From positions 248,001 through 312,000 of the forward strand of contig JAUSJA010000033.1 of assembly GCA_030647905.1 (NCBI GenBank): a stretch of DNA of 64,000 nt, given 5' to 3'. Numbering within the stretch: the stretch's first letter is position 1; the number at the start of each line of letters is the position of its first letter. This stretch comes from Gemmatimonadaceae bacterium (lineage in GTDB: Bacteria; Gemmatimonadota; Gemmatimonadetes; Gemmatimonadales; Gemmatimonadaceae). The notes beneath the pieces were generated by a model. That model made no database searches and was not told where the DNA came from. It saw only the letters and a program-made list of their open reading frames with translations. This document shows positions 6,781-34,867 of the stretch, piece after piece. The position numbers and the translations under genes are program-made.

Positions 6781-8139
6781 TCAGGCCCCCGCGAAGAACT
6801 GTACGAGCAGCCAAATGTTGAGCCCCGCGATTACGGCCGCAACCAGATACGCCAGCGCCTTGAGCCATACCGGATTCACGAACTGTCCCATCTTCACCTT
6901 GTCCGACGTGAATCTCACGAGCGGAACGACGGCGAACGAAAGCTGCATGCTGAGAATCACCTGGCTCAGGATCAGGAGCCGCGCTGTCCCGCTCTCGCCG
7001 TACATGATGGCGACGATCGCTGCCGGAATGATCGCGATCGAACGAGTGATCAGCCGCCGCATCCACGGCCGCAGGCGGATGTTGAGGAATCCCTCCATCA
7101 CTATCTGGCCGGCGAGCGTTCCCGTCAACGTCGAGTTCTGTCCCGACGCGAGCAGCGCGAGCGCGAACATCGTACTCGCCCCGGCGCCGAGCAGCGGCGT
7201 GAGAAGCTTGTACGCGTCCTGGATCTCGGCGACGTCGTTGTGACCGCTCTTGTGGAAGGTCGCCGCCGCCACGATCAGGATCGCGGCGTTGATGAACAAC
7301 GCGAACGACAGCGCAATCGTCGAATCAATGAACGCGAACTTGACCGCTTCCTTCTTCCCTTCCGCCGTCTCCTCGTATCTCCTCGTCTGAACGATGGAGG
7401 AGTGCAAATAGAGGTTGTGCGGCATCACCGTAGCGCCGAGTATGCCGACCGCCACGTACAGCATCGCCGGATTCGTCACCACCTGCGCGGATGGGATGAA
7501 CCCGCGCAACACTCCGCCGAGCGGCGGGCCAGAGAGAACGATCTCGAAGAGGAAGCAGATGCCGACGGTCGCCACCAGCGTGATCACCAGCGCCTCGAGA
7601 AGACGGAATCCCTTGTTCTGCAGGTACAGAACGACCATCACGTCAAGCGCGGTAAGCATGATTCCGAGCGTAAGCGGAATCCCGAAGAGCAGGTTGAGCG
7701 CGATGGCAGATCCGATCACCTCTGCCAGATCGCAGGCGGCGATGGCGAGTTCGCAGATGACCCACAGGAACCACGCGACCGGCGTCGGATAATGGTCGCG
7801 GCACGCCTGGGCGAGATCGCGGCCGGTCACGATGCCGAGCTTGGATGACAGACCCTGGAGAAGGATCGCCATCATGTTCGACATCAGAATCACCGTCAGC
7901 AGCGTGTAGCCGAACTGGGATCCGCCGGCGAGGTCGGTCGCCCAGTTTCCGGGGTCCATGTAACCGACCGCGACCAGGTATCCGGGCCCGGCGAACGCCA
8001 GAATCTTCCTCCACCACGGCCCGGAGGTCACGGGAACACTCCGGTACACCTCGGCCAGTGACGGCGTTATGCGAGCCCGCCTCCATCCCGCGCCTGGATG
8101 CGGTAATTCCCTCTTTGGAGGAGCAAATCGAGTGGCCAC
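6781..8139 (-). CDS. mntH: Nramp-family Mn2+/Fe2+ transporter MntH
   Basis: The protein has 452 residues and about eleven membrane helices. It has the two Nramp metal-site motifs: DPGNW in helix 1 ([12 protein letters not shown]) and MPHNLYLHS in helix 6. These residues coordinate the divalent metal in characterised Nramp proteins, so proton-coupled Mn2+ (and Fe2+) import is expected. The start is a GTG at 8139 without a clear ribosome site. It is the first gene of an operon with usp and a DtxR-type repressor, and its promoter overlaps a palindrome (8196-8209), which suggests metal-dependent autoregulation. Confidence 0.93.
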
Positions 8140-8249: not shown

Positions 8250-8864
8250 CTAGTCAGATTCGTCGTCGAAGAATGCCAGCAGCCCCGAGAGAATCCTCTC
8301 GGTCATCCCCCAGACGACGTAGCCCCGATGATGGAAAGCGAACCGGCTCATCTCGATGCCTCGGGCCGTGACTGTCGTATCCCGCCAGACCGAGCGGTCG
8401 AGGAGAACGGAAAGGGGAACCCAGAAGGAATCCGCCACTTCCGGGCTCAGCACTGGCGGGGGCGGTTCGGAGATCAGAAACACGAACGGCCTTACGAGAA
8501 CGTCGGGCAGATGGACGGTCCAGGGCCTGAGATCGTTCAGAACGCCGAGGGGATACGCGTGATTGCGGAGATCCATCTGCGTCTCCTCGAACGTCTCCCG
8601 CATCACCGTCTCGAGCAGCGAGGTGTCCGACGGTTCCTCGCGCCCGCCGGGAAACGCAACCTGCCCGCTCCAGGGATCGCCGTCGTACACGGCTCGCTGA
8701 ATGAAAAAAACCTCGGGCTCACTTTCGGCCCCCAACCGGATCAGGATCGCCACCGCCGCACGCCAGGCGACGGGATCATGGACCTCGACAGGATTGTGCG
8801 ACGATAGCGCGGCCTCGAGCCGCACGATCCGCGGGTCACTGCGCAGCGGATCCACCACGCTCAC
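8250..8864 (-). CDS. NUDIX hydrolase, CoA pyrophosphatase-like
   Basis: The 204-residue protein has the layout of the NudL/YeaB CoA-pyrophosphatase group: FIQRAVYDGDPWSGQVAFPGG followed by the metal-binding nudix helix MRETFEET. As in that subfamily, the spacing before the RE...EE core differs from the canonical nudix box. The likely reaction is hydrolysis of CoA-type dinucleotides; other nucleoside diphosphate-X substrates are possible. A GTG start at 8864 overlaps the stop of the hydrolase gene. It is the last gene of a rhodanese-hydrolase-nudix operon. Confidence 0.85.
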   Translation of the reverse strand: MSVVDPLRSDPRIVRLEAALSSHNPVEVHDPVAWRAAVAILIRLGAESEPEVFFIQRAVYDGDPWSGQVAFPGGREEPSDTSLLETVMRETFEETQMDLRNHAYPLGVLNDLRPWTVHLPDVLVRPFVFLISEPPPPVLSPEVADSFWVPLSVLLDRSVWRDTTVTARGIEMSRFAFHHRGYVVWGMTERILSGLLAFFDDESD

Positions 8865-9694
8865 ATCAAATGCTTCGTAAAAAAGTCCACGGTCTCGCGC
8901 GTCACCAATTCCAGTGTCGGCGTCACCACTCCGAGCGGGTGCTTCCCGCCGAAGGAATGGTTGACGCCATCGAGCACCCTGAGCTTGCTGACCCCGTCGG
9001 AGAGCGCGGACAGGCGCTCGCCCTCGGTGACAGGCACGGTCTCGTCATCGGATCCGTGCAGAATCAGCCACGGCACGCGAATTCGCGAAGCGGCGAACGC
9101 GATGTTGAGACGGGTCTCGCCCAGTTGCTCGACCTCGTGCAGCAGCTCGATGCTGAGCGGGATCACGTCGCCGGTGCGCGAATTGGCGATGTCTATGTAC
9201 CCGCGCTGTCTCCAGTCGGCGACGATCTCCGGCGGCCACCGATTGGTGCTCGAGATCGCCGCCCACGTCACCAGCGCTTTCACATCCGGATCGCGCGAGG
9301 CACGAAGAATCGCCACCCCTCCGCCGCGTGAATGCCCGAATAGCCCGTATCCGCCCTCGATCCAGTCGCGCACGCGTGCTTCCTCTACCACGGCCTCCAG
9401 ATCGTCGAGCTCCTGGAGATACGTGTTGTGCGTGAACACGTCGCGATTGGTGAAGCTCTCGCGGTCCTCGCCCACGCCACTGCCGGAGAAATCGAACGTG
9501 ATGGCGCGAAGCCCCGCCTCCGCCAGCTCCTCGGCCACATGCGGAAAGAACGAGAAGTGGGCGAATCCCTTGAATCCGTGGCAGATGACGACAGTGCCGG
9601 CCGGCTTGTCGGGCAGGCGCGCCTCGCCGCGGATGATGAGAGGTGCTTCGTCACCCCGCTCCCGCCATAGCTCGAATTGCTCGAGCTCGATCAT
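8861..9694 (-). CDS. alpha/beta hydrolase (serine esterase-like)
   Basis: The 277-residue protein shows an alpha/beta hydrolase fold: oxyanion region VVICHGFKGF, nucleophile elbow GHSRGGG (serine in GxSxG), the acid region LILHGSDDETVP and the catalytic histidine in GVNHSFGG. No signal peptide is seen, so it is cytoplasmic. The ATG at 9694 overlaps the rhodanese stop (ATGA); longer frames run into the rhodanese gene. Substrate not deducible. Confidence 0.88.
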   Translation of the reverse strand: MIELEQFELWRERGDEAPLIIRGEARLPDKPAGTVVICHGFKGFAHFSFFPHVAEELAEAGLRAITFDFSGSGVGEDRESFTNRDVFTHNTYLQELDDLEAVVEEARVRDWIEGGYGLFGHSRGGGVAILRASRDPDVKALVTWAAISSTNRWPPEIVADWRQRGYIDIANSRTGDVIPLSIELLHEVEQLGETRLNIAFAASRIRVPWLILHGSDDETVPVTEGERLSALSDGVSKLRVLDGVNHSFGGKHPLGVVTPTLELVTRETVDFFTKHLM

Positions 9695-10047
9695 GACTCG
9701 ACTTCCCCTCCCGCGTCCACCCATCCGCGGATCCCGCCGACCATCGAGGCCACGTCGGTGTATCCCATCTGCTGCATCGTGTCGGCGGCGAACGCTGACC
9801 TGTTGCCGCTCGCGCAGTAGATCACAACCGACTTGTCGCGAGGAATCGCGGCCTCGATCTTCGTCTCGAGGTTGCCGCGCGGAATGAACACCGCGCCCGG
9901 AATATGGCCGAGGTTCCACTCCTGCGGCTCGCGGCAATCGAGATACACGAGGTTCGGATTGTCGTCCGCCATCGCCTCGGCCGCAGTCACCTGGCGGATG
10001 CGCGACTTGGCTTCGTCAATAAGCTCGGTGGCTGTCTTTTGCGGCAT
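9691..10047 (-). CDS. rhodanese-domain sulfurtransferase
   Basis: This is a single-domain rhodanese of 118 residues: DCREPQEWNLGHIPGA and the active-site loop YCASGNRSAFAA with the sulfur-carrying cysteine. It is predicted to carry sulfane sulfur as a persulfide. The ATG at 10047 is preceded by an AGGAGA ribosome site. It is the first gene of a three-gene operon with the hydrolase and nudix genes; no common pathway is evident. Confidence 0.9.
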   Translation of the reverse strand: MPQKTATELIDEAKSRIRQVTAAEAMADDNPNLVYLDCREPQEWNLGHIPGAVFIPRGNLETKIEAAIPRDKSVVIYCASGNRSAFAADTMQQMGYTDVASMVGGIRGWVDAGGEVES

Positions 10048-10122: not shown

Positions 10123-11037
10123 TTAGCCGCTCACGACGTGGAGCGACAGGTCACTCGTGTCCACCTCGGCGATTGCGCCGAGTGGAATCGTCCATTGGTC
10201 GTGGATGTGTCCGAACGGCGCGCCGGCGAGGCACGGAATCCCCGCCGCGTCGGCCGCTTCGGCGATGACATCGTCCACCGCCCGGTTGTCCGCCGCCATT
10301 GCCACCGATAGCGGCTTGAAATCGCCGGCGACGACCGCCACGCACCGCTGGAGCGCGCCCGCGAGGAGAAGCTGCCGCATCATCCGGTCCACTCGGTACA
10401 CGGCTTCGTCTACGTCCTCGAGAACGAGAATCGCCCCCTCGAAATCCACCGACCATGGGGTGCCCATGAGGGACGAGATGAGCGCGAGGTTGCCCCCGGC
10501 GAGGCGCCCCCGGGCGCGTCCCCCGCGCAGCACGCGGCCGTGTGAAGCGACGCCGCAGGAGTCGGTCTGGTCAACGACCGCGCGGACGAGCGAGTCGCGG
10601 GAGAAATCGCTCAGCTCTACTCGCGCGGTGGGACCGTGGAACGACACAAGCCCGCACTCGCGGTGGATCGCCGCGTGAAACGCGGTGATGTCGGAGAAGC
10701 CGATGAGGGGGCGGGGATGTGCGCGAAGCGATGCGTAATCGAGATCGGGCAGGAGCCGCATGGCGCCGTAGCCGCCGCGGATGCACCAGATCGCATCTAT
10801 GGTTTCGTCGGCCAGCGCGCGATTGAGGTCGGCGAGGCGCTCGGTGTCGCTGCCGGCGAGGTAGCCATGGAGCGAAGCGACGTTCGCTCCGGTCACCGGA
10901 GTCCAGCCGAGCGAGCGCGCGTTCTCCTCAGCGCGCCGGATGTGAGTGGGGTCCGGGAGAATTCCGGCTGGCGCGATGAGCGCGACTCGCGCGCCGGGCC
11001 CCAGAGGCGTTAGAGCGCCGAAGAGATTCGTTTTCAT
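10123..11037 (-). CDS. LD-carboxypeptidase, peptidase family S66
   Basis: The 304-residue protein has the S66 (LdcA/MccF) signatures: N-terminal GARVALIAPAG, substrate loop AIWCIRGGYGAMRLLP, nucleophile in GFSDIT, a glutamate in VLEDVDE and a histidine in GAPFGHIHDQ, giving the Ser-Glu-His triad. The family removes the terminal D-Ala from murein tetrapeptides during cytoplasmic muropeptide recycling, or inactivates microcin C7-like compounds. No signal peptide, consistent with recycling. It is divergent from the glycosyltransferase at 11127. Confidence 0.9.
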   Translation of the reverse strand: MKTNLFGALTPLGPGARVALIAPAGILPDPTHIRRAEENARSLGWTPVTGANVASLHGYLAGSDTERLADLNRALADETIDAIWCIRGGYGAMRLLPDLDYASLRAHPRPLIGFSDITAFHAAIHRECGLVSFHGPTARVELSDFSRDSLVRAVVDQTDSCGVASHGRVLRGGRARGRLAGGNLALISSLMGTPWSVDFEGAILVLEDVDEAVYRVDRMMRQLLLAGALQRCVAVVAGDFKPLSVAMAADNRAVDDVIAEAADAAGIPCLAGAPFGHIHDQWTIPLGAIAEVDTSDLSLHVVSG

Positions 11038-11126: not shown

Positions 11127-12287
11127 GTGAACGGAACTTTCATCGCCGTCCTCGCCGCCATCCCGTGGGGATTGAGCGCGCTCGTCACGGGCATCCGCTT
11201 CAGGAATTCCAGGTCGCTCGGCGAAGAGAGTCCCGAGCCGCCGGCTGACGCGCCTCTGGTGAGCGTGGTGATTCCGGCGCGGAACGAGGCGCGGAACATC
11301 GAGCGCTGCGCGCGGTCGGTGCTGACGGCGACCTGGCCGAATCTCGAGGTGATCGTGGTGGACGACCAGTCCACTGACGGCACCGGCGACATCGCGCGGG
11401 CAATCGCGAAGGACGACGCGAGATTGCGCGTAATCGGGAACGATCCGCTCCCCGCGGGCTGGTTCGGCAAGCAGTGGGCGTGCACCACCGGCGCGCGCGC
11501 GTCGAGCGGCGCAATCATCCTCTTCGCCGACGCCGACACCACGCACTCGAGCGATCTCGTCACACGCTCGGTGAACGCGATGATTCGGCGGAAGGCCGAT
11601 CTGTTCTCGGTGGCCGGCACGCAGGAGCTGGGCAGCTTCTGGGAGAAGCTGGTGCAGCCGCAGGTATTCGGGCTGCTCGCGGTGCGCTACGGCGGGACGG
11701 AGAGCGTGACGCAATCGAGACATGCAACGAACAAGATCGCCAACGGGCAGTGCCTGTTCGTGAGGCGCGCGGCATACGAAGAGCTTGGCGGCCACGAGCT
11801 CGTGAAGTCGCACGTGGCCGAAGACATGATGATGGCGCAGCGTTTTTTTGCCCGTGGAAAGAACGTCGTTCTCGCCGAGGGGCTGGAGCAGCTCTCGACG
11901 CGCATGTATACGTCGCTTGGCGAGCTGATCGCCGGGTGGGGGAAGAACGTCTTTGCCGGCGGGCGGGATGCGATTCCACTCGGCTGGTTCGGCCGGCTTC
12001 TCTATCCGTTCATTCTGCTGAGCGCGCCGCTCTCGGGTCTAGTGCCCGCTCTCGTTCTGGTTGCGAGCGTAGTCGCTCCGGTGCCGGGTGCATTGATTCT
12101 CTGGGCGGCGCTCACGCAGGGGATTCTTCTGGTCTGGTGGGCTTACGCGTACTGGATCATAGGCCAGTCGCCACTCTATGCGCTTCTCTCCCCGCTCGGC
12201 GCGGCGATGGTGTTCTGGATTTTTCTCCGCGCGATTCTCAGGGGGCGGCGAGTGATGTGGAAGGGCCGAGAGTACGTCTCGGGCTAG
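11127..12287 (+). CDS. membrane glycosyltransferase, family 2
   Basis: The 386-residue protein has an N-terminal helix, a GT-A domain (VSVVIPARNEARNIERC, VVDDQSTDGT, FADADTTHS with the DxD metal site, acceptor loop EDMMMAQRF) and three to four C-terminal membrane helices after residue 285. It resembles hopanoid/carotenoid-type GT2 enzymes, which glycosylate lipid acceptors at the cytoplasmic membrane. The GTG at 11127 is the first codon of the frame near the divergent gene. The acceptor cannot be told from the sequence. Confidence 0.85.
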   Translation: MNGTFIAVLAAIPWGLSALVTGIRFRNSRSLGEESPEPPADAPLVSVVIPARNEARNIERCARSVLTATWPNLEVIVVDDQSTDGTGDIARAIAKDDARLRVIGNDPLPAGWFGKQWACTTGARASSGAIILFADADTTHSSDLVTRSVNAMIRRKADLFSVAGTQELGSFWEKLVQPQVFGLLAVRYGGTESVTQSRHATNKIANGQCLFVRRAAYEELGGHELVKSHVAEDMMMAQRFFARGKNVVLAEGLEQLSTRMYTSLGELIAGWGKNVFAGGRDAIPLGWFGRLLYPFILLSAPLSGLVPALVLVASVVAPVPGALILWAALTQGILLVWWAYAYWIIGQSPLYALLSPLGAAMVFWIFLRAILRGRRVMWKGREYVSG

Positions 12288-12307: not shown

Positions 12308-12526
12308 ATGACCTTACGTGGCGGTAACGTCGATCGCGAGTTCGTGGTAGGGACGGGGGGCCGGGCGCTTTACACGCTGGGCACTCTACGGGCGAACAGC
12401 CAGGTCTTCAACTCGGCGACTTACGGCGTGCTCAAGCTCACGCTCTCGGCGAGCTCTTACTCCTGGCAGTTCGTTCCGATCGCCGGCCAGTCATTCACGG
12501 ATGCAGGATCCGGAAGCTGCCACTAG
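12308..12526 (+). pseudogene. 3' remnant of a metallophosphoesterase (purple-acid-phosphatase-like) gene
   Basis: The 72-codon frame from the ATG at 12308 encodes REFVVGTGGRALYTLGT, then NSATYGVLKLTLSASSYSWQ and FTDAGSGSCH. This is the C-terminal strand-rich end seen in secreted calcineurin-like/purple acid phosphatases (GTGG..., TYGVLKLTL, FTDSGS..CH). The metal-binding body of the enzyme is absent upstream, where the glycosyltransferase gene ends at 12287. It is best read as a severed gene tail, probably inactive. Identification rests on recognised similarity of this tail only. Confidence 0.55.
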
Positions 12527-12670: not shown

Positions 12671-15600
12671 GTGCGTTCTCTCGCTTCAGCGGCGCGGCTT
12701 CTCGACAGGTGCGTAAGCGCGCTGGCGGCCAGTCCATTGCTTGCCGAGCTCGGCTTCGCCGCGCCCATCCCGATCAACGCGGAGATGACCGCATCGCTTG
12801 GCGTGGCCGGCATCGCCGGGCGCGCGATGGTGGCGCGGGGTGCCGGATCGTCTAGAGCTCTCGTTTTCGAGATCCTCCCATCGGCCGATCTGCGCCATGA
12901 GATGGGACGCATCGCGTCACGGCTTTCGTCGCGAGCCCCGCATCTGCTGTGGATCCTCGTCGGCATTGACTCACATGGCGATGAAGTCGGAGTCGCCTCG
13001 TTCGACGTCAGCCGGCCGCGTCCGCGTGTCGTCGCGCTCATCGCGCGGCGCGGACACATCGTGGACAGCGACTCCGAGACCGTGTGCGCCCTGGCCGCGG
13101 CGATCGGCGAATCGGACGTCCACACGCACTGCCGCTGGCTCGAGATACTCGGCAGGGAGTCGGTCGGCCGACGGTTCTTCCGCGCGCTCGAGCAATCCGT
13201 CAGGCACCTGGCGGACAGTCTTGCGCCACCAATCAACCGCGCAGATGCATCGGAGTTGTCACTCCTGTATGTATCGCGACTGCTCTTTCTTTCCTTTCTG
13301 GAGACGAAGGGATGGCTCGACTGCGATCACGGCTTCCTTGGGAACCGCTATGCCGGCTGCATGGTGCAGGGCGGCGGATATCATCGCCGCGTGCTCGCCC
13401 CGCTGTTCTTCGGCACGCTCAACACGCATCCGCGAAACCGCGCTGCGCGCGCCCGCGCATTCGGTCGAATCCCTTTTCTCAACGGCGGCCTCTTCGCGCG
13501 CTCGCCGCTCGAGACGCGCACCGCCGGGGCGACATTCACCGACGAAGCGCTTGGCGATGTCTTCGCCAATCTCCTGACCCGCTACAGATTCACCGCGCGG
13601 GAGGACAGCAGCACGTGGTCCGAAGCCGCGATAGACCCGGAGATGCTCGGCAAGGCGTTCGAGTCGCTCATGTCGTCATCGAACCGAAAGACGACGGGTG
13701 CGTTCTACACGCCGCAGTCGCTGGTTTCCGACGTCTCACGCAGCGCGCTCGCGGACGGCCTCGAGTGTCGCACTGTCGGATTCGCGTGCGTGACAGAGGC
13801 GCTCTCCGGCGGAATTCCCCGCCCCCACCAGCGCTCGGCGCTGCTCGCAGGAATATCCGCGCTGCGCGTGCTCGACCCCGCGTGCGGCTCAGGATCATTC
13901 CTCGTCCACATCCTCGAGCAGCTGTCATCACTCCGCACGCGGCTCGGCGATCTACGCCCTCTTCACGTGATCCGCAGGGAGATTCTGACCACGTCCATCT
14001 TCGGGGTGGATATCAGTCCGACCGCCGTGTGGCTCTGCGAGCTCCGGCTCTGGCTGTCCATGGCGATCGAGGATCCGGAGTCCGATCCGGTGAAGGTGAC
14101 GCCTCTTCCGAATCTCGACCGTAACATCCGTGTCGGCGATTCGCTGGGCGGGGAGGCATTCGTCGAGACCGCGTTCAGGAGCGGCGGACGAAAGCTCGCC
14201 GCCGTGAGATCCCGCTACACGCGCGCGACCGGCCCGAAGAAGCGCTCGCTCGCCCGGATGCTCGACAGGATGGAGCGCGAGCTCGCACTCTCGGCGTTCA
14301 CCGCAACCACGGTCCGGTTAAGGGGCGAGCGATCGGAGTTGCTCGCCGCCCTGCGGTCACGCGACCTGTTCGGGGAGCGGCTCGCGCCGAACGCGGAGAC
14401 AAGGACGCGGCTCGCGCGACTGCGCGACGAGCTGCGCGCGTCGGCGAAGGAATCGCGACGCCTGAACGGTGGAGGCGCGCTGCCATTCTCCTTCGCGACG
14501 CAATTCGCGGACGTCGCTGCCGCCGGAGGATTCGACGTGATCGCGGGAAATCCACCGTGGGTTCGAACGCATAACTTCGACCCCCGGTCGCGACTGAGGT
14601 TGAAGCAGTCGTTCGCGGTATATCGGAATTCCGCCTGGAAGGCGGGGAGCGACGCGGCCGCTGCGGGCCGTGGGTTCGGATCGCAGGTGGATGTCTCCGC
14701 TCTCTTCATCGAGCGCAGTGTAGAGCTGCTGCGTCCTGGGGGCACGATGGCCCTTCTCGTCCCGGCCAAGCTCTGGCGTTCGCTCGCCGGCGGAGGCGTG
14801 CGCTCGTTTCTCCTCGAGAATACGGATCTGAGAAAGATCCGGGACCTCGGCAGCTCGACGAATGTGTTCGACGCCGCGGTGTATCCGTCTATCGTGGTCG
14901 CGAACCGCCGCGCTCACACGTTGAATGACGATCGGCGCGACCGTCCGCCTGTCGCGGTGTGTGTCGGCGAAGAAGCAAGTCGGAACAACGAATGGATGAT
15001 GTGCGCCGACAGGCTTCCGCTGGACGCTTCACGCGGAGCGCCGTGGCTGCTCCTTCCCGCTGAAGTCCGCGCCGCATTCGACCGCGTGCGCGGGGCTGGT
15101 GACCCGATGGCGGAGAGTATCTTTGGCCGCCCGTTGCTGGGAGTGAAGACCGGCTGCAACGACGCGTTTTTCGTTTCAGGATTCGAAGGAAGCATCGAGC
15201 GCACGATGCTGCGCGCGCTTGTGCGCGGCGATCGCGTGATGAAATGGGCTCTGGGACCATGCGACGCATCCATCATCTGGACGCACGATTCAGCGGGAGC
15301 ACCACTGCGATCACTTCCTCCGGCGGCAATGCGATGGCTGTCTGGATGGCGGCGCGATCTCGAGGCGCGCAGCGACGCCCGCGGGCGCGCGCGATGGTGG
15401 ATGCTCTTTCGCACCGAAGCCGCCGACGCGTCCCTTCCCCGCGTCGTCTGGTCCGATATCGGCCGATCTCCCAGGGCAGCGGTCATCCTTCAAGGCGATA
15501 CCGCGGTGCCGATCAACAGCTGCTACGTCGCTCGCTGTCCGACGCTGACGGACGCACACGCATTGACGGCGTTGCTCAACTCGCCTCTGATCGCCGCATG

Positions 15601-15835
15601 GCTTGGTGTCGTCGCGGAGCCGGCGCGGGGCGGATACCGGCGCTATCTGGGGTGGACCATGTCACTGCTTCCCATTCCCCACAATTGGGAGAGGGCGCGG
15701 GCGATCCTCGCGCCGATCGGACTTGCGGCATTCGGCGGCGACGAGCCGAGTGATTCCGACCTGTTGCAGTCGGCTCTCGACGCATACGGCCTCAATGAAT
15801 CAACGGTGGCGGCCCTCCTCCAGTGGACCGCCTGA
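12671..15835 (+). CDS. Eco57I/PglX-like adenine-N6 DNA methyltransferase
   Basis: The 1054-residue protein contains an N-terminal region of unknown fold (1-160). A helical coupler-like region follows (LLYVSRLLFLSFLETKGWL, about 200). The methylase core has TTGAFYTPQSLV, motif I VLDPACGSGSFLVHILEQL (SAM binding) and motif IV GNPPWVRTHN (catalysis). A TaqI/Eco57I-like specificity domain starts at GVKTGCNDAFFVSG. This is the gamma-class layout of type IIG, BREX PglX and DISARM DrmMI methylases. The stop overlaps the helicase start by 13 bp, so the two proteins probably act together. No PD-ExK nuclease motif was recognised by eye. The start is a GTG. Confidence 0.88.
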   Translation: MRSLASAARLLDRCVSALAASPLLAELGFAAPIPINAEMTASLGVAGIAGRAMVARGAGSSRALVFEILPSADLRHEMGRIASRLSSRAPHLLWILVGIDSHGDEVGVASFDVSRPRPRVVALIARRGHIVDSDSETVCALAAAIGESDVHTHCRWLEILGRESVGRRFFRALEQSVRHLADSLAPPINRADASELSLLYVSRLLFLSFLETKGWLDCDHGFLGNRYAGCMVQGGGYHRRVLAPLFFGTLNTHPRNRAARARAFGRIPFLNGGLFARSPLETRTAGATFTDEALGDVFANLLTRYRFTAREDSSTWSEAAIDPEMLGKAFESLMSSSNRKTTGAFYTPQSLVSDVSRSALADGLECRTVGFACVTEALSGGIPRPHQRSALLAGISALRVLDPACGSGSFLVHILEQLSSLRTRLGDLRPLHVIRREILTTSIFGVDISPTAVWLCELRLWLSMAIEDPESDPVKVTPLPNLDRNIRVGDSLGGEAFVETAFRSGGRKLAAVRSRYTRATGPKKRSLARMLDRMERELALSAFTATTVRLRGERSELLAALRSRDLFGERLAPNAETRTRLARLRDELRASAKESRRLNGGGALPFSFATQFADVAAAGGFDVIAGNPPWVRTHNFDPRSRLRLKQSFAVYRNSAWKAGSDAAAAGRGFGSQVDVSALFIERSVELLRPGGTMALLVPAKLWRSLAGGGVRSFLLENTDLRKIRDLGSSTNVFDAAVYPSIVVANRRAHTLNDDRRDRPPVAVCVGEEASRNNEWMMCADRLPLDASRGAPWLLLPAEVRAAFDRVRGAGDPMAESIFGRPLLGVKTGCNDAFFVSGFEGSIERTMLRALVRGDRVMKWALGPCDASIIWTHDSAGAPLRSLPPAAMRWLSGWRRDLEARSDARGRARWWMLFRTEAADASLPRVVWSDIGRSPRAAVILQGDTAVPINSCYVARCPTLTDAHALTALLNSPLIAAWLGVVAEPARGGYRRYLGWTMSLLPIPHNWERARAILAPIGLAAFGGDEPSDSDLLQSALDAYGLNESTVAALLQWTA

Positions 15836-18102
15836 GCACTCTCGAGGCTCCGCTCAGCATCGTTCACCTTGATAAAGCGCGGCACGCAATCGCCGCAGCG
15901 CTTCTCGGCGACGAAGCGGATCGGGATCCGCATGCCACCGCTGGCTCGCTTGGACGCATACGGCTGCGACCCCATCAGATCGAAGCGATTGGCCGGCTCC
16001 GGCAGGCGATTGAAGAATTCGGCGGCGCTTTGCTGGGCGATCCTGTCGGAACGGGTAAGACTTTCGTCGCACTCGCGCTGGCATCGAGTACCGAGCGAAT
16101 TCTCGTCGTCGCGCCGGCGGTGCTGCGGACGATGTGGACGCAGGCCGCGCTCGCCGCGGGCCGCACCATCCGACTCACGTCGTTCGAATCACTGAGTCGG
16201 GGAAACAACGATGTCGCAGCGCACGATCTCCTGATCGTGGACGAAGCACATCACGCGCGGAATCCACGTACTCGCCGTTACGCGGCGCTGGCGCGGCTCG
16301 CCTCGCGGGGACGCGTACTCCTCCTCTCAGCGACGCCGATCCATAACCGCCGCCACGAGTTGACGAGGCTGCTTTCCCTCTTTCTCGGCGAGCGGGCGAC
16401 ATCGCTCACGGACGCGGAGCTGGGCCGGTGTGTAGTGCGCCGAGCGCACGTGGTTGGCGCTGCAGATGAGGCAATGCCGCGAATCGAGCCATTGCGCTGG
16501 TGCGACCAGCCCGACGACGACTCGGTTCCGCGCATACTGCTGGCTCTTCCGCCGCCGCTTCCGCCCCGTGAGGGCGGCGACGGCGGCGCGCTCGTTGCGC
16601 ATTCGCTGATCAGGCAATGGGCATCGAGCAACGCGGCTCTCGAGGGCGGTCTCACGAGGCGTTTGCACAGAGCGATTGCGCTCACCGCCGCTCTCGAGGA
16701 CGGAACGTATCCGTCGCGCACGGAGCTGGCGGCATGGAGCAGCGCCGAGGATTCCGTGCAGCTCGCGTTCTCGTCGCTCCTCGCGCCGGCTGAGTCGGGG
16801 ACGGCGCAGCTGCTGCCGGTGATCCGCAAACATCGTCACGCCGTGGCATCGCTCCTCGATCGCATTCGTCTTGACAGGCGCCGCGATGACGAGCTCGCCG
16901 CAACGATACGCCAGCTGCGCCAATCGCATCACGGCGTACCCATAGTCGCGTTCTCGCAATACGAGGATACGATTCAAGCGCTGTTCGGCCGTCTCGCGAA
17001 CGATGGCGAGGTAGCGGCTCTGAGCGGTTCCGGCGCACGTGTCGCGGGTGGAAGCATTTCCCGCGGTGACGCCATCAGCCGGTTCGCACCGGTCGCTTCG
17101 GGGTGCCCTGCTCCGCCCCGATCGGAGAGAGTCTCGCTTCTGCTCACGACTGATCTGCTGAGCGAAGGAGTCAATCTTCAGGACGCCGGCGTGATCGTGC
17201 ATCTGGATCTTCCATGGACGCCCGCGCGCATGGAGCAGCGCCTTGGCAGAATTGCGCGGATCGGCTCGCCGTATTGTCGCGTGTTCGCGTACGCAATGCG
17301 GCCACCGGCGAACGCCGACGCGATCGTGCGCATCGAGAGGATCCTGCACGAGAAGATGAAGGCTGCGGCCACGGTGATCGAATCGTTCCCTTCCCTGATG
17401 ACTGTGGCGACGGACTTCGCGGATACATCCACGAACGGGCCGCGGATGATCGAGTCCGCCCGCCGGCTCATCTCCGAATGGTTGAATGATGCGTCCATCG
17501 GATTGACCGGCGCGCCGCTTGTCGCGGCAGCAGTCGCACCGATCGACGGCTTTCTCGCGGCGTGCAGAATCAACGGCCAGGTCTTTCTCTTCGGCTGTCT
17601 CGACGGTCGCATCACTGACGAGCCGGAGATGATCCTTCGCTGCGCTCGATACTGTCGGGGCAGGCCGACGCGAATCTGCGAAACGGAGGCATCCGTGTGT
17701 CTGGATTTACTCAGCGCGCATGTCGAAGCGGCGCACCTGCTTCGCGGCGTGAAGCCCGCCGCGGCTGCGACCAATCACGTGCGCCGCAGTGCGCTCCGGC
17801 ACATTGCCGTCGCCGCGGCTCGGTCGCGCCCTCACATGCGCGCGCGTGTTTCCGTGCTCGCGAAAAGCGCTCGAAACGTGGTGACAGGCAATTTTGGCAG
17901 CCACGCCGAGCTCGAGCTTGCGACGCTCGATTCCCTGGACCTGAGCGATGAAAAGTGGCTCGAGCGCGTGATCGAGTTCGGATCGAGATTCGGCGCCGCA
18001 ACCTCGCCTCGCGCCGAAGATGCCGGCGTCGTGGTCATCGCGATGATCGTCTTTCGCTGTCGTCGTGACGCGATTGTGTTGTCGTCCGCAACGGAACGCT
18101 GA
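15823..18102 (+). CDS. SNF2-like superfamily 2 helicase paired with the methyltransferase
   Basis: The 759-residue protein has SF2/SNF2 motifs: Q-type LRPHQIEAI, Walker A GDPVGTGKTF, Walker B LLIVDEAHHARN, motif III LLLSATPIHN, motif V LSEGVNLQDAGVIVHLDLPW and motif VI EQRLGRIARIG. An insertion of about 170 residues separates the two RecA lobes. The last 250 residues match nothing I recognise; no nuclease motif is evident. It starts with GTG 15823 inside the 3' end of the methylase gene. Together they resemble the helicase/methylase pair of DISARM or split type ISP enzymes, without their other partners. Confidence 0.85.
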   Translation: MDRLSTLEAPLSIVHLDKARHAIAAALLGDEADRDPHATAGSLGRIRLRPHQIEAIGRLRQAIEEFGGALLGDPVGTGKTFVALALASSTERILVVAPAVLRTMWTQAALAAGRTIRLTSFESLSRGNNDVAAHDLLIVDEAHHARNPRTRRYAALARLASRGRVLLLSATPIHNRRHELTRLLSLFLGERATSLTDAELGRCVVRRAHVVGAADEAMPRIEPLRWCDQPDDDSVPRILLALPPPLPPREGGDGGALVAHSLIRQWASSNAALEGGLTRRLHRAIALTAALEDGTYPSRTELAAWSSAEDSVQLAFSSLLAPAESGTAQLLPVIRKHRHAVASLLDRIRLDRRRDDELAATIRQLRQSHHGVPIVAFSQYEDTIQALFGRLANDGEVAALSGSGARVAGGSISRGDAISRFAPVASGCPAPPRSERVSLLLTTDLLSEGVNLQDAGVIVHLDLPWTPARMEQRLGRIARIGSPYCRVFAYAMRPPANADAIVRIERILHEKMKAAATVIESFPSLMTVATDFADTSTNGPRMIESARRLISEWLNDASIGLTGAPLVAAAVAPIDGFLAACRINGQVFLFGCLDGRITDEPEMILRCARYCRGRPTRICETEASVCLDLLSAHVEAAHLLRGVKPAAAATNHVRRSALRHIAVAAARSRPHMRARVSVLAKSARNVVTGNFGSHAELELATLDSLDLSDEKWLERVIEFGSRFGAATSPRAEDAGVVVIAMIVFRCRRDAIVLSSATER

Positions 18103-18181: not shown

Positions 18182-19105
18182 ATGCGAACGCGATTCACGT
18201 ACGTCGCACTTCTGCTGGCCATCGCGGCTGGTACGACGCTCACCATCGTGAGCTGCGCACCAGACTCGACTGCGCCCGGCGTTGTGGCCGGCGCCCCCGA
18301 TCCCCTCATCACGCGTCAGAAGGTCGAAGACCTCCGCGAGAAATACGGCTGGATCGGCAAGTACCATACGGACGGGCTCGAGTACATCTATTCCCAGCTC
18401 GTCAGGAACAGCAGCAGGCTGACGAGCAAGGCGGAGGTCTGCAAAGTCGCGGCGAAGGCGCTCAAGGAGTTCCATCGGACCGCGCGGCACGGCGATCTCC
18501 CGGCAGGCCTCGTGGATCCATCGCTTTCCGCCGAGGTTTGCGCGGCGTCGCAGGATCCCAGTCCGATCAAGCGATCGCTGTTCGCGAACGTGTCTCCCGG
18601 ATCTGTACGCGCCGACCTGTCGGCGACGGCCGTGGGGTACATGAGCCAGATCGCATACCTGTCTGAGAACGCAACTTCGAGAACCGGACTGTTGAACGAC
18701 ATTTATAGTGTCGAGTCACAGTCTGCAGCAGTGCTCCCGGAAGCAGAGGCGGGAGCCGTGACCGCGGTTGCGTCCATCGCCGTCAGCTCGATTTACTACT
18801 GGGAACCCAACCTCAGCTCGTGGACTTCGGTGTCCGTCGGCACCGAGACAGCGTACTCGCGCGCCTCTGAATTCGGATCACCAGCCACGTCGAGCTCGGT
18901 GGGAGCACTCCCCGACAAGGTGAGCGCCACGGACTGGTGGTCGAATCCCTACATTCGCGGATTCGGCAAAGTTCTCGGCGCCGACGCGCTCGCGGGAGGG
19001 AGGACGATCTATACGACGTGGGCACTCGGGCCCATCGGCTGGGACGCGGCCGCCGCGAGCGCCGTGTGGGGTTCAGCAACCACCGCGTTGGCACTCATTT
19101 TCTGA
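18182..19105 (+). CDS. lipoprotein of unknown function
   Basis: The start at 18182 follows a strong AAAGGAGG site. Residues 1-24 form a lipoprotein signal peptide ending TIVSC, with Cys25 as the predicted lipidation site. The remaining 280 residues are acidic to neutral, have two further cysteine-containing segments (EVCKVAAKAL, EVCAAS) and a small-residue-rich C-terminal third with hydrophobic stretches (TAVASIAVSSIYYW, AAAASAVWGSATTALALIF). No family recognised. It is followed by a hairpin at 19138-19172 and is unlikely to be cotranscribed with the 19269 gene. Confidence 0.7.
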   Translation: MRTRFTYVALLLAIAAGTTLTIVSCAPDSTAPGVVAGAPDPLITRQKVEDLREKYGWIGKYHTDGLEYIYSQLVRNSSRLTSKAEVCKVAAKALKEFHRTARHGDLPAGLVDPSLSAEVCAASQDPSPIKRSLFANVSPGSVRADLSATAVGYMSQIAYLSENATSRTGLLNDIYSVESQSAAVLPEAEAGAVTAVASIAVSSIYYWEPNLSSWTSVSVGTETAYSRASEFGSPATSSSVGALPDKVSATDWWSNPYIRGFGKVLGADALAGGRTIYTTWALGPIGWDAAAASAVWGSATTALALIF

Positions 19106-22075: not shown

Positions 22076-23233
22076 TTATCGTCTCGTGCTCCCGGCGAGT
22101 CGCTGCTCGAGCTCCGGTAGCCAATTGGGCACGACGATCAACTGATAATCGTCCTTGTTGGAAACGAGCCCGAGGAATCGGCCGTCCTTCGCGACGTCGT
22201 AATTGCTGACCGGGCCCCCGGTCGCCATCGAGCCGGCCTGCGTCACTGCCGTGTCGCGAGAGAGCACACGCAGGCTGGGCGTGGTGGCCAGCTTCGCCGA
22301 CATGATGACATCTCCGAACCGATAGAAAATCCGAGTGCCGTCTGCGGACCACGCCGGTTCACCGCCGCCGCCAGCGGAGAACAATCCCGCTGTGCCAAGT
22401 GCGCCGCGGCCCAGCAACGCTTCGGCGAATTCGTGTGCGGTCGAGAACCGATCGGCGGGAAGCTTTTCCAGCGCATGTTGTACAGCTGCCTCGACGTGCT
22501 CCGGAATTGCGGGGCGCGTGCTACGCATCGAGCGCGGCTTGTCTATCAGCACACGGGCGATGATCGCTTGCGCCGTGGTCCCCGTGTGCGGCGCCTCGCC
22601 GGTGAGCATCTCGTAGGTCACAGCGCCGAGAGAGTAGATATCGCTGCGGCCGTCGATCACGCGGTCACCCGTGGCTTGCTCGGGGCTCATGTACTGCGGC
22701 GTGCCCAGCGAAAGGCCGGTTTGCGTGATGCGATTGCCGCCCGCCTTGCTGACTGCGAGGGCGATACCGAAATCGGCGATCACGGGCTGTCCCGCCTGAA
22801 GGAGAATGTTCTCCGGTTTGAGATCACGGTGGATGACGCCGTGCGAGTGCGCGTAATCGAGCGCGTTGGCGATGGCGACTGCGATTCTCACCGCCTCATC
22901 AATCGGGAGCTGCTTCTCACGCGTGAGCCGGGCACGCAGGGACTCGCCCTCGACAAACGGCATGACGTAGAACAGCAGCCCATCCGCCGTGCCCGAATCG
23001 AAGAGCGGAAGGAGATTGGGATGCTGGAGATTCGCCGTAACCTTTATCTCGGCGAGGAATCGTTCTACGCCGAGCACCGCGCCGAGCTCGGGGTTGAGCA
23101 GCTTGAGGGCGACGTGTCGGTCGTGGCGAAGGTCACGCGCGAGGTAGACGGTGGCCATCCCGCCGGCCCCAATCTCACGCTCGATGTCGTAGCGTTCGGA
23201 AAGCGAAGCTTTGAGCTGCGCCAATGCGTCCAC
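22076..23233 (-). CDS. Ser/Thr protein kinase with internally deleted sensor region
   Basis: Residues 1-275 form a complete Hanks kinase: GAGGMATVYLARD, VALKLL, IHRDLKPENILL, IADFGIAL and GTPQYMSPEQATGD, so activity is expected. In related bacterial kinases a membrane helix and a roughly 500-residue beta-propeller sensor follow. Here the kinase passes within about 20 residues into a last blade-like piece (EPAWSADGTRIFYRFGD) and the usual C-terminal end VVPNWLPELEQRL. The membrane helix and most of the propeller are missing, consistent with an in-frame deletion. The start is GTG 23233. It is divergent from the S9 peptidase gene. Confidence 0.88.
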   Translation of the reverse strand: MDALAQLKASLSERYDIEREIGAGGMATVYLARDLRHDRHVALKLLNPELGAVLGVERFLAEIKVTANLQHPNLLPLFDSGTADGLLFYVMPFVEGESLRARLTREKQLPIDEAVRIAVAIANALDYAHSHGVIHRDLKPENILLQAGQPVIADFGIALAVSKAGGNRITQTGLSLGTPQYMSPEQATGDRVIDGRSDIYSLGAVTYEMLTGEAPHTGTTAQAIIARVLIDKPRSMRSTRPAIPEHVEAAVQHALEKLPADRFSTAHEFAEALLGRGALGTAGLFSAGGGGEPAWSADGTRIFYRFGDVIMSAKLATTPSLRVLSRDTAVTQAGSMATGGPVSNYDVAKDGRFLGLVSNKDDYQLIVVPNWLPELEQRLAGSTRR

Positions 23234-34798: not shown

Positions 34799-34867
34799 TC
34801 GCCGCCTGTCGGGCATTCTGATCGCCGTTTGTCAGGCATTCTGGTCGCCGTTTGTCAGGCATTCACG
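34799..34867. repeat. three tandem 23-bp repeats in a divergent promoter region
   Basis: Three adjacent 23-bp units start at 34799, 34822 and 34845. They share TCGCCG, then TGTCAGGCATTC (unit 1 has CTGTCGGGCATTC). They lie in the 284-bp spacer between mtrA (minus) and the tetraheme cytochrome gene (plus). The core TGTCAGGCAT recurs at 50332-50341 upstream of the sensor kinase. Tandem regulator-binding sites are the likeliest reading; no array of spacers exists, so this is not CRISPR. Confidence 0.75.

What the first reader, a model, noticed from the sequence alone, without database searches (positions are those of the whole stretch)
12671..18102. Two-gene methyltransferase-helicase unit, candidate minimal anti-phage system
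A 1054-residue gamma-class adenine methylase with a target-recognition domain overlaps by 13 bp a 759-residue SNF2-type helicase. This pairing is the core of DISARM class 1 (DrmMI/DrmD) and of split type ISP enzymes, yet no PLD nuclease, DUF1998 protein, or PglZ-like partner is nearby and no nuclease motif was recognised. Either the uncharacterised N-terminal 160 residues of the methylase or the last 250 of the helicase hold a new effector, or the system acts without cutting. A severed gene tail directly upstream suggests insertion into a variable site.
Basis: partly seen in the sequence, partly recalled or inferred. Interest (0 to 1): 0.68.

Follow-up and report, generated by a model that had tools for sequence, protein, structure and literature searches.

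The report
Core nuclease-free methylase–helicase pair
Two overlapping genes, a DNA adenine methylase and a DNA-pumping motor, look like part of an anti-phage system, but nearly every relative carries them at the same chromosomal spot and without any DNA-cutting part, so they are more likely a built-in DNA-marking system that descended from a defence system and has not been described before in the papers I could search.

Summary
In detail: a 1054-aa gamma-class (Eco57I-type) adenine methylase at 12671-15835 overlaps by 13 bp a 759-aa SNF2/RapA-type helicase at 15823-18102. No nuclease was found in either protein.

The interpretation mostly fails. The pair is not an accessory island in a variable site. 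In >=90%-complete genomes the methylase occurs in 96/106 Gemmatimonadaceae and 49/54 members of sister families, single copy, usually beside the helicase and usually in the same gene neighbourhood. The upstream stub is a decayed metallophosphoesterase; a longer copy sits in the same place in a congener. The same pair is core in an Acidobacteriota order (19/19 genomes, its own fixed locus) and in a class of Myxococcales-labelled MAGs (39/57). All 89 such methylases form one clade (support 0.92), keep NPP[WFY], and none of 77 helicases has the PLD/HKD nuclease found in their mobile plasmid cousins.

Best reading: a restriction/BREX-related pair without its cutter that became a vertically inherited chromosome-marking module. 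The methylase marks; the translocase is inferred to help it scan. Gemmatirosa kalamazoonensis keeps the methylase without the helicase; its published methylome contains ATGCAC, a plausible but unproven target. A fixed, non-cutting defence role is not excluded.

The parts
12671..15835 (+). Gamma-class (Eco57I/type IIG/BrxX-like) adenine DNA methyltransferase, 1054 aa: N-terminal alpha/beta domain 1-160, helical spacer 161-395, catalytic domain 396-750, target-recognition domain ~790-1005
   Evidence: AlphaFold model pLDDT 89.9
13874..13894 (+). SAM-binding motif I (DPACGSG, residues 402-408), kept in 86 of 89 homologues
14549..14560 (+). Catalytic motif IV (NPPW, residues 627-630); NPP[WFY] in 89/89 homologues
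15823..18102 (+). SNF2/RapA-type helicase (dsDNA translocase), 759 aa: motor 41-525, fast-evolving C-terminal region 526-759; overlaps the methylase by 13 bp
12335..12526 (+). Remnant 3' end of a metallophosphoesterase gene, homologous to the longer copy directly upstream of the same methylase in congener G013
11127..12287 (+). Family-2 glycosyltransferase, conserved syntenic neighbour (cluster c2), not part of the module
10123..11037 (-). LD-carboxypeptidase (Peptidase_S66), conserved syntenic neighbour (c4), not part of the module
9691..10047 (-). Rhodanese-domain protein in the position of conserved neighbour c5, not part of the module
8250..8864 (-). NUDIX hydrolase, conserved syntenic neighbour (c3), not part of the module
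6781..8139 (-). Nramp-family transporter, conserved syntenic neighbour (c7), not part of the module

Best explanation
The pair is a core, vertically inherited DNA-marking module related to restriction/BREX-type systems but without their nuclease. The methylase uses SAM to put m6A on one strand of a short asymmetric motif throughout the host chromosome. The co-translated SNF2/RapA-like protein is a double-strand DNA translocase that moves along DNA with or ahead of the methylase, helping it reach and scan sites occluded by nucleoid proteins, RNA polymerase or replication. Shown: both genes, intact catalytic motifs across three clades, tight coupling, fixed locus, largely vertical descent, no nuclease in either protein, and a helicase-free natural variant. 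Inferred: that methylation is the selected function, that the target is asymmetric (ATGCAC in Gemmatirosa is the candidate), that the helicase assists methylation, and that the ancestor carried a nuclease.
For: Near-universal in its order: methylase in 96/106 Gemmatimonadaceae and 49/54 of two sister families at >=90% completeness; helicase in 91/99 relatives. Mostly the same gene neighbourhood in the family, the same divergence rate as ordinary neighbours (48.7% versus 46.9-55.4% for several), and 10 of 22 tree splits shared with neighbour genes against 0.33 by chance. Core in two further groups: 19/19 of an Acidobacteriota order, with its own fixed locus, and 39/57 of a Myxococcales-labelled class. 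Motifs kept: NPP[WFY] 89/89, Walker A and DEAH 77/77; HKD nuclease 0/77. The recognition domain is as conserved as the catalytic domain (49% versus 50% within Gemmatimonadota). No match covering >=80% of either protein on 72,556 plasmids, or of the methylase on 50,697 phages. The genome matching Gemmatirosa KBS708 keeps the methylase without the helicase, and that strain has three motifs methylated at >99% of sites, one of them a plain asymmetric hexamer (PMC3974934). CamA, a lineage-conserved methylase, is among the closest solved structures (its role is from my knowledge).
Against: No methylation data for this genome. The ATGCAC assignment is incomplete, because the RGATCY enzyme of KBS708 was not identified, and ATGCAC is neither depleted nor enriched in the sampled DNA. 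All close functionally studied relatives (DISARM, ARMADA, BREX-related) are defence systems. The pair is lost in some genomes (all six Gemmatimonadaceae under 2.5 Mb), so it is not essential. Recognition-domain conservation is similar in the mobile cousins (34% versus 37%), so it does not by itself separate housekeeping from defence. Some supported tree conflicts exist.
Confidence: 0.58

Rival explanations
1. A fixed innate defence that does not cut. The methylase marks self; the helicase translocates on unmarked phage DNA and blocks its replication or transcription, as BREX is thought to do, and it has simply become core in these lineages.
For: The helicase core resembles DpdE, DrmD and a PLD anti-phage helicase; the methylase resembles DrmMI, PglX and type IIG enzymes. 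In ARMADA the helicase and methylase motifs are both needed for protection (PMC12458937). The helicase C-terminal region evolves fast.
Against: Fixed locus and near-universal presence are unusual for defence systems; no third gene (sensor, ATPase, PglZ, DUF1998, nuclease) is conserved beside it; the methylase persists without the helicase in one complete genome.
Confidence: 0.27
2. A split restriction system whose nuclease is encoded elsewhere and recruited in trans.
For: Mobile cousins fuse a PLD/HKD nuclease to the helicase, and a minority of type-2 BREX-related systems use separate auxiliary nucleases (PMC12839542).
Against: No conserved nuclease neighbour in about 80 loci from three clades. 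Nucleases elsewhere in the genome were not surveyed.
Confidence: 0.07
3. A recently inserted minimal anti-phage island with a new effector in the methylase N-terminus or helicase C-terminus.
For: Both terminal regions lack Pfam matches, and the methylase N-terminus has no significant PDB relative by profile.
Against: Locus fixed across the family; upstream stub explained by decay of a neighbour gene; no conserved catalytic-looking residues in the N-terminus; the C-terminus is missing in nearly all sampled Acidobacteriota homologues.
Confidence: 0.03
4. The helicase has an independent role (transcription recycling like RapA, or repair), and the operon only co-regulates two unrelated functions.
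For: RapA is the best solved relative of the helicase; the methylase can occur without it.
Against: The two genes are adjacent and co-oriented in three clades and paired in the BREX/DISARM/ARMADA cousins (PMC12458937), which argues for a joint function.
Confidence: 0.05

Closest known systems
BREX-related (BR) type-2 systems (PMC12839542) and the plasmid methylase + PLD-helicase systems seen here (Nostoc pn2, Deinococcus pRadio5, Thermus pTHEOS02)
   Same: N6-adenine methylase paired with a SNF2 helicase; these are the nearest nuclease-bearing relatives found.
   Different: The cousins carry an N-terminal PLD/HKD nuclease (and in BR systems DUF499 and DUF3780) and those seen here sit on plasmids, one beside viperin; the core pair has none of these, forms a separate clade (0.92 support, stem 0.77) and is fixed in the chromosome.
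DISARM class 1 (DrmMI/DrmD) and ARMADA (ArmA/ArmB)
   Same: Same two-protein pairing: SNF2/RapA-like helicase plus PglX-like methylase.
   Different: No YprA/DrmA helicase, DUF1998 protein or PLD protein beside it or (for MZB/DUF1998) anywhere in the genome; scores far below the curated cut-offs (DrmD 98.8 versus 610 bits).
CamA (Clostridioides difficile) and other lineage-conserved orphan methylases such as CcrM and Dam
   Same: Lineage-wide, vertically kept adenine methylase without a cognate nuclease; CamA is among the closest solved structures.
   Different: Those act without a dedicated SNF2 translocase partner, and their biology is established experimentally (from my knowledge).
Type IIG / type ISP restriction enzymes (MmeI, BsaXI, LlaGI class)
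   Same: Same methylase fold, helical spacer and C-terminal recognition domain; type ISP also combines a translocase and a methylase (from my knowledge).
   Different: No nuclease residues recognised; two proteins instead of one.

Membership tests
DISARM class 1 | DrmMI-type methylase and DrmD-type SNF2 helicase at curated score | tested here: not met
   DrmD 98.8 bits versus cut-off 610; no DISARM methylase model among the NCBIfam hits; PADLOC DrmMI 91.7 bits
DISARM class 1 | DrmA helicase, DrmB (DUF1998) and DrmC (PLD) in the operon | tested here: not met
   No third conserved gene; no MZB/DUF1998 anywhere in the genome
ARMADA | YprA-like helicase (ArmC) with the ArmA/ArmB pair | tested here: not met
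   None adjacent; MZB (DUF1998) absent from the genome. YprA-like helicases without MZB were not searched separately.
BREX | PglZ and BrxC with a PglX/BrxX methylase | tested here: not met
   PglX models far below cut-off (48.2 versus 900 bits); none of the neighbours scanned is PglZ or BrxC, and no gene is conserved in that role. The rest of the genome was not searched for them.
BREX-related type-2 system | HKD/PLD nuclease at the helicase N-terminus | tested here: not met
   HKD in 0 of 77 core-clade helicases, HKD motif or PLDc_2 match in the cousins
BREX-related type-2 system | DUF499 ATPase and DUF3780 gene in the locus | tested here: inconclusive
   No conserved neighbour in ~80 loci, but not every neighbour was scanned by profile
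Type IIG / type ISP restriction enzyme | Nuclease domain (D-ExK type) at the methylase N-terminus | tested here: not met
   No conserved acid/acid/lysine set in residues 1-160; fold library search could not be run
Lineage-conserved orphan (housekeeping) adenine methylase | Near-universal, vertically inherited, no cognate nuclease, intact catalytic motifs | tested here: met
Lineage-conserved orphan (housekeeping) adenine methylase | Methylates the host chromosome and affects the host | not testable with these tools
   Only indirect: KBS708 methylome (PMC3974934), motif-to-enzyme assignment incomplete

The most novel reading that the evidence does not exclude
Deep bacterial lineages (Gemmatimonadales, an Acidobacteriota order, a Myxococcales-labelled class) share a translocase-assisted methylation system, a bacterial analogue of SNF2 remodellers such as DDM1/HELLS that enable DNA methylation on protein-coated DNA, domesticated from a restriction system and used for heritable chromosome marking.
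Probability: 0.22. Interest if true: 0.85.

Novelty: new variant of a known kind. Interest (0 to 1): 0.56.

Why it matters
Methylases kept by nearly a whole bacterial order are rare and tend to be regulators (CcrM, Dam, CamA; from my knowledge). One paired with its own SNF2 motor, in three little-studied groups, would be a new epigenetic system. It would also show how a restriction system can be disarmed and kept. It is directly testable: cultured Gemmatimonadota exist, one published methylome (KBS708) already lists three motifs, and that strain is a natural helicase-loss variant.

Tried and rejected
Insertion scar: the upstream stub was traced to a metallophosphoesterase with a longer copy in the same place in a congener. 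The intact ~705-aa gene between glycosyltransferase and methylase in L062/L066 was checked as its source; its sequence looks like a TonB-type receptor and it is unrelated to the stub. Hidden nuclease in the methylase N-terminus: no conserved residues, no PDB profile match. Effector in the helicase C-terminus: low conservation, missing in Acidobacteriota. YprA/DUF1998 partner elsewhere: none. Motif signature of ATGCAC by 6-mer bias: neutral. Assigning the KBS708 motifs by elimination: incomplete. Recognition-domain conservation as a discriminator between housekeeping and defence: not discriminating. Literature on the pair in these phyla: none found.
Full report
Observation. The methylase runs 12671-15835 (+, GTG start, 1054 aa) and the helicase 15823-18102 (+, GTG start, 759 aa), overlapping by 13 bp. 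Pfam finds Eco57I and N6_Mtase in the first, SNF2-rel_dom and Helicase_C in the second. PADLOC and NCBIfam place the methylase near type IIG, DrmMI, PglX and MAD2, and the helicase near DpdE, DrmD and a PLD anti-phage helicase. All NCBIfam hits are far below curated cut-offs, for example DrmD 98.8 versus 610 bits. By profile the closest solved methylases are M.BseCI and CamA, then MmeI, BsaXI and BrxX; the closest solved helicase is RapA (the name CamA for 7lni is from my knowledge). AlphaFold models are good (methylase pLDDT 89.9, helicase 81.3).

Distribution. The window lies in a 3.1-Mb genome whose named near relatives are Gemmatimonadaceae. Of 99 relatives, 91 have the helicase and 91 the methylase, in 55 of 57 genera. 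In a phylum-wide draw of 295 genomes at least 90% complete, the methylase (E <= 1e-40) is in 96 of 106 members of the family and 49 of 54 members of two sister families, but in only 15 of the remaining 135 (the split is my count of the table). All six family members below 2.5 Mb lack it; 96 of the 100 larger ones have it. As a rough control, strong Type I HsdM matches occur in only 3 of 5 Gemmatimonadales genomes tested, while the core methylase is in all five.

Locus. Around the pair in 41 loci, the same genes recur in most family members: glycosyltransferase, LD-carboxypeptidase, rhodanese, alpha/beta hydrolase, NUDIX and Nramp, in the same order as in the window. No third gene is conserved as a partner. 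The methylase diverges at the same rate as most neighbours (48.7% mean identity against 46.9-55.4% for several; Nramp is slower), and pairwise distances correlate with the helicase and with several neighbours. Its tree shares 10 of 22 splits with a tree of neighbour genes, where random relabelling gives 0.33 on average and 4 at most; some supported conflicts remain. This is largely vertical inheritance at a fixed site.

The severed tail. Window 12335-12526 matches the end of a metallophosphoesterase. In congener G013 a copy of at least 269 aa with the Metallophos domain lies directly upstream of the same methylase. The stub is therefore a decayed neighbour, not an insertion scar of the pair.

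Outside the phylum. Homologues occur in Acidobacteriota, in MAGs labelled Myxococcales or Proteobacteria, and more distantly in Nitrosomonadaceae, Syntrophaceae and cyanobacteria. The helicase was found with the methylase in nearly all of these loci. In an Acidobacteriota order the methylase is in 19 of 19 genomes and, in the loci with enough flank, sits in one conserved neighbourhood different from the Gemmatimonadota one. In the order and class around a Myxococcales-labelled MAG it is in 24 of 26 and 39 of 57 genomes. In nearly all sampled Acidobacteriota the helicase ends shortly after the motor, so the C-terminal 250 residues cannot be a required effector.

Nuclease. The distant relatives in Nitrosomonadaceae, Syntrophaceae and Hyella, and the plasmid-borne ones in Nostoc (beside viperin), Deinococcus and Thermus, carry an N-terminal PLD domain on the helicase. 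None of 77 core-clade helicases has an HKD motif; all keep Walker A and DEAH, and all 89 methylases keep NPP[WFY]. The 89 form one clade (support 0.92, stem 0.77) apart from the nuclease-bearing cousins. Because the tree was rooted on those cousins, loss of the nuclease is an inference; gain in the cousins is possible. Residues 1-160 of the methylase show no conserved nuclease-type residues. MZB/DUF1998 is absent from the genome and found in 5 of 61 relatives. No plasmid record matches 80% or more of either protein, and no phage record 80% or more of the methylase.

Target. G. kalamazoonensis KBS708 has published m6A motifs RGATCY, ATGCAC and CCAGN7TCA, each >99% methylated (PMC3974934). Genome G033 fits it by size (7.5 Mb, 4 contigs, chromosome 5,311,527 bp against 5,312 kb). 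It has the core methylase but no helicase hit. By Pfam its detected adenine methylases are the core enzyme and one Type I HsdM; families PF02086 and PF01555 gave none. CCAGN7TCA fits the Type I enzyme. ATGCAC, asymmetric, fits the core enzyme, but the RGATCY enzyme was not found, so I put this at about 60%. ATGCAC shows no depletion or enrichment in the sampled DNA.

How it probably works. The methylase marks chromosomal sites with m6A; the SNF2 motor, made from the same message, translocates on duplex DNA and helps the methylase scan. The methylase is the constant part: it survives without the helicase in KBS708, whereas the clearest relative with a helicase match but no methylase match (G006) has its helicase at a contig end. 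That fits selection for methylation. A non-cutting defence role, as in BREX, remains the main rival, because all functionally studied relatives defend and because conservation alone does not exclude it. Recognition-domain conservation did not discriminate: the mobile cousins show a similar ratio.

Known or new. DISARM class 1 and ARMADA (PMC12458937) and BREX-related systems (PMC12839542) use the same pair with more parts. None of the papers I could search describes the stand-alone pair or its near-universal presence in these groups; the library holds open-licence papers only. I file it as a new variant of a known kind: a lineage-conserved orphan methylase with a dedicated SNF2 partner.

Noticed in passing
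G033 (fits Gemmatirosa kalamazoonensis KBS708), L074:8334-12089: Methylase present without the helicase in a complete genome with a published methylome; a natural helicase-loss variant.
   Followed up: partly
L250, L251, L157, L158: In one family of the class (named member Kutchimonas) the helicase carries a 155-190 aa N-terminal extension; no Pfam match in the two scanned (L157, L158).
   Followed up: partly
L281, L282, L285: Plasmid cousins: methylase, an accessory gene (GmrSD/DUF262-like in Deinococcus) and a PLD-SNF2 helicase; beside viperin in Nostoc. They look like a mobile defence system.
   Followed up: partly
window 22076-23233: Protein-kinase-like gene of 385 aa whose relatives in L054 and L082 are 859-882 aa; it looks shortened, with a short TolB-like tail.
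   Followed up: no
window 34799-34864: 23-bp tandem repeat, 2.9 copies, 90% matches.
   Followed up: no
family f1 (no window coordinates): All six Gemmatimonadaceae genomes under 2.5 Mb lack the methylase while 96 of 100 larger ones keep it; possible loss with genome reduction.
   Followed up: no
window 18182-19105: Downstream 307-aa ORF that looks like a lipoprotein, no Pfam match; a homologue also lies downstream of the pair in congener L070.
   Followed up: no
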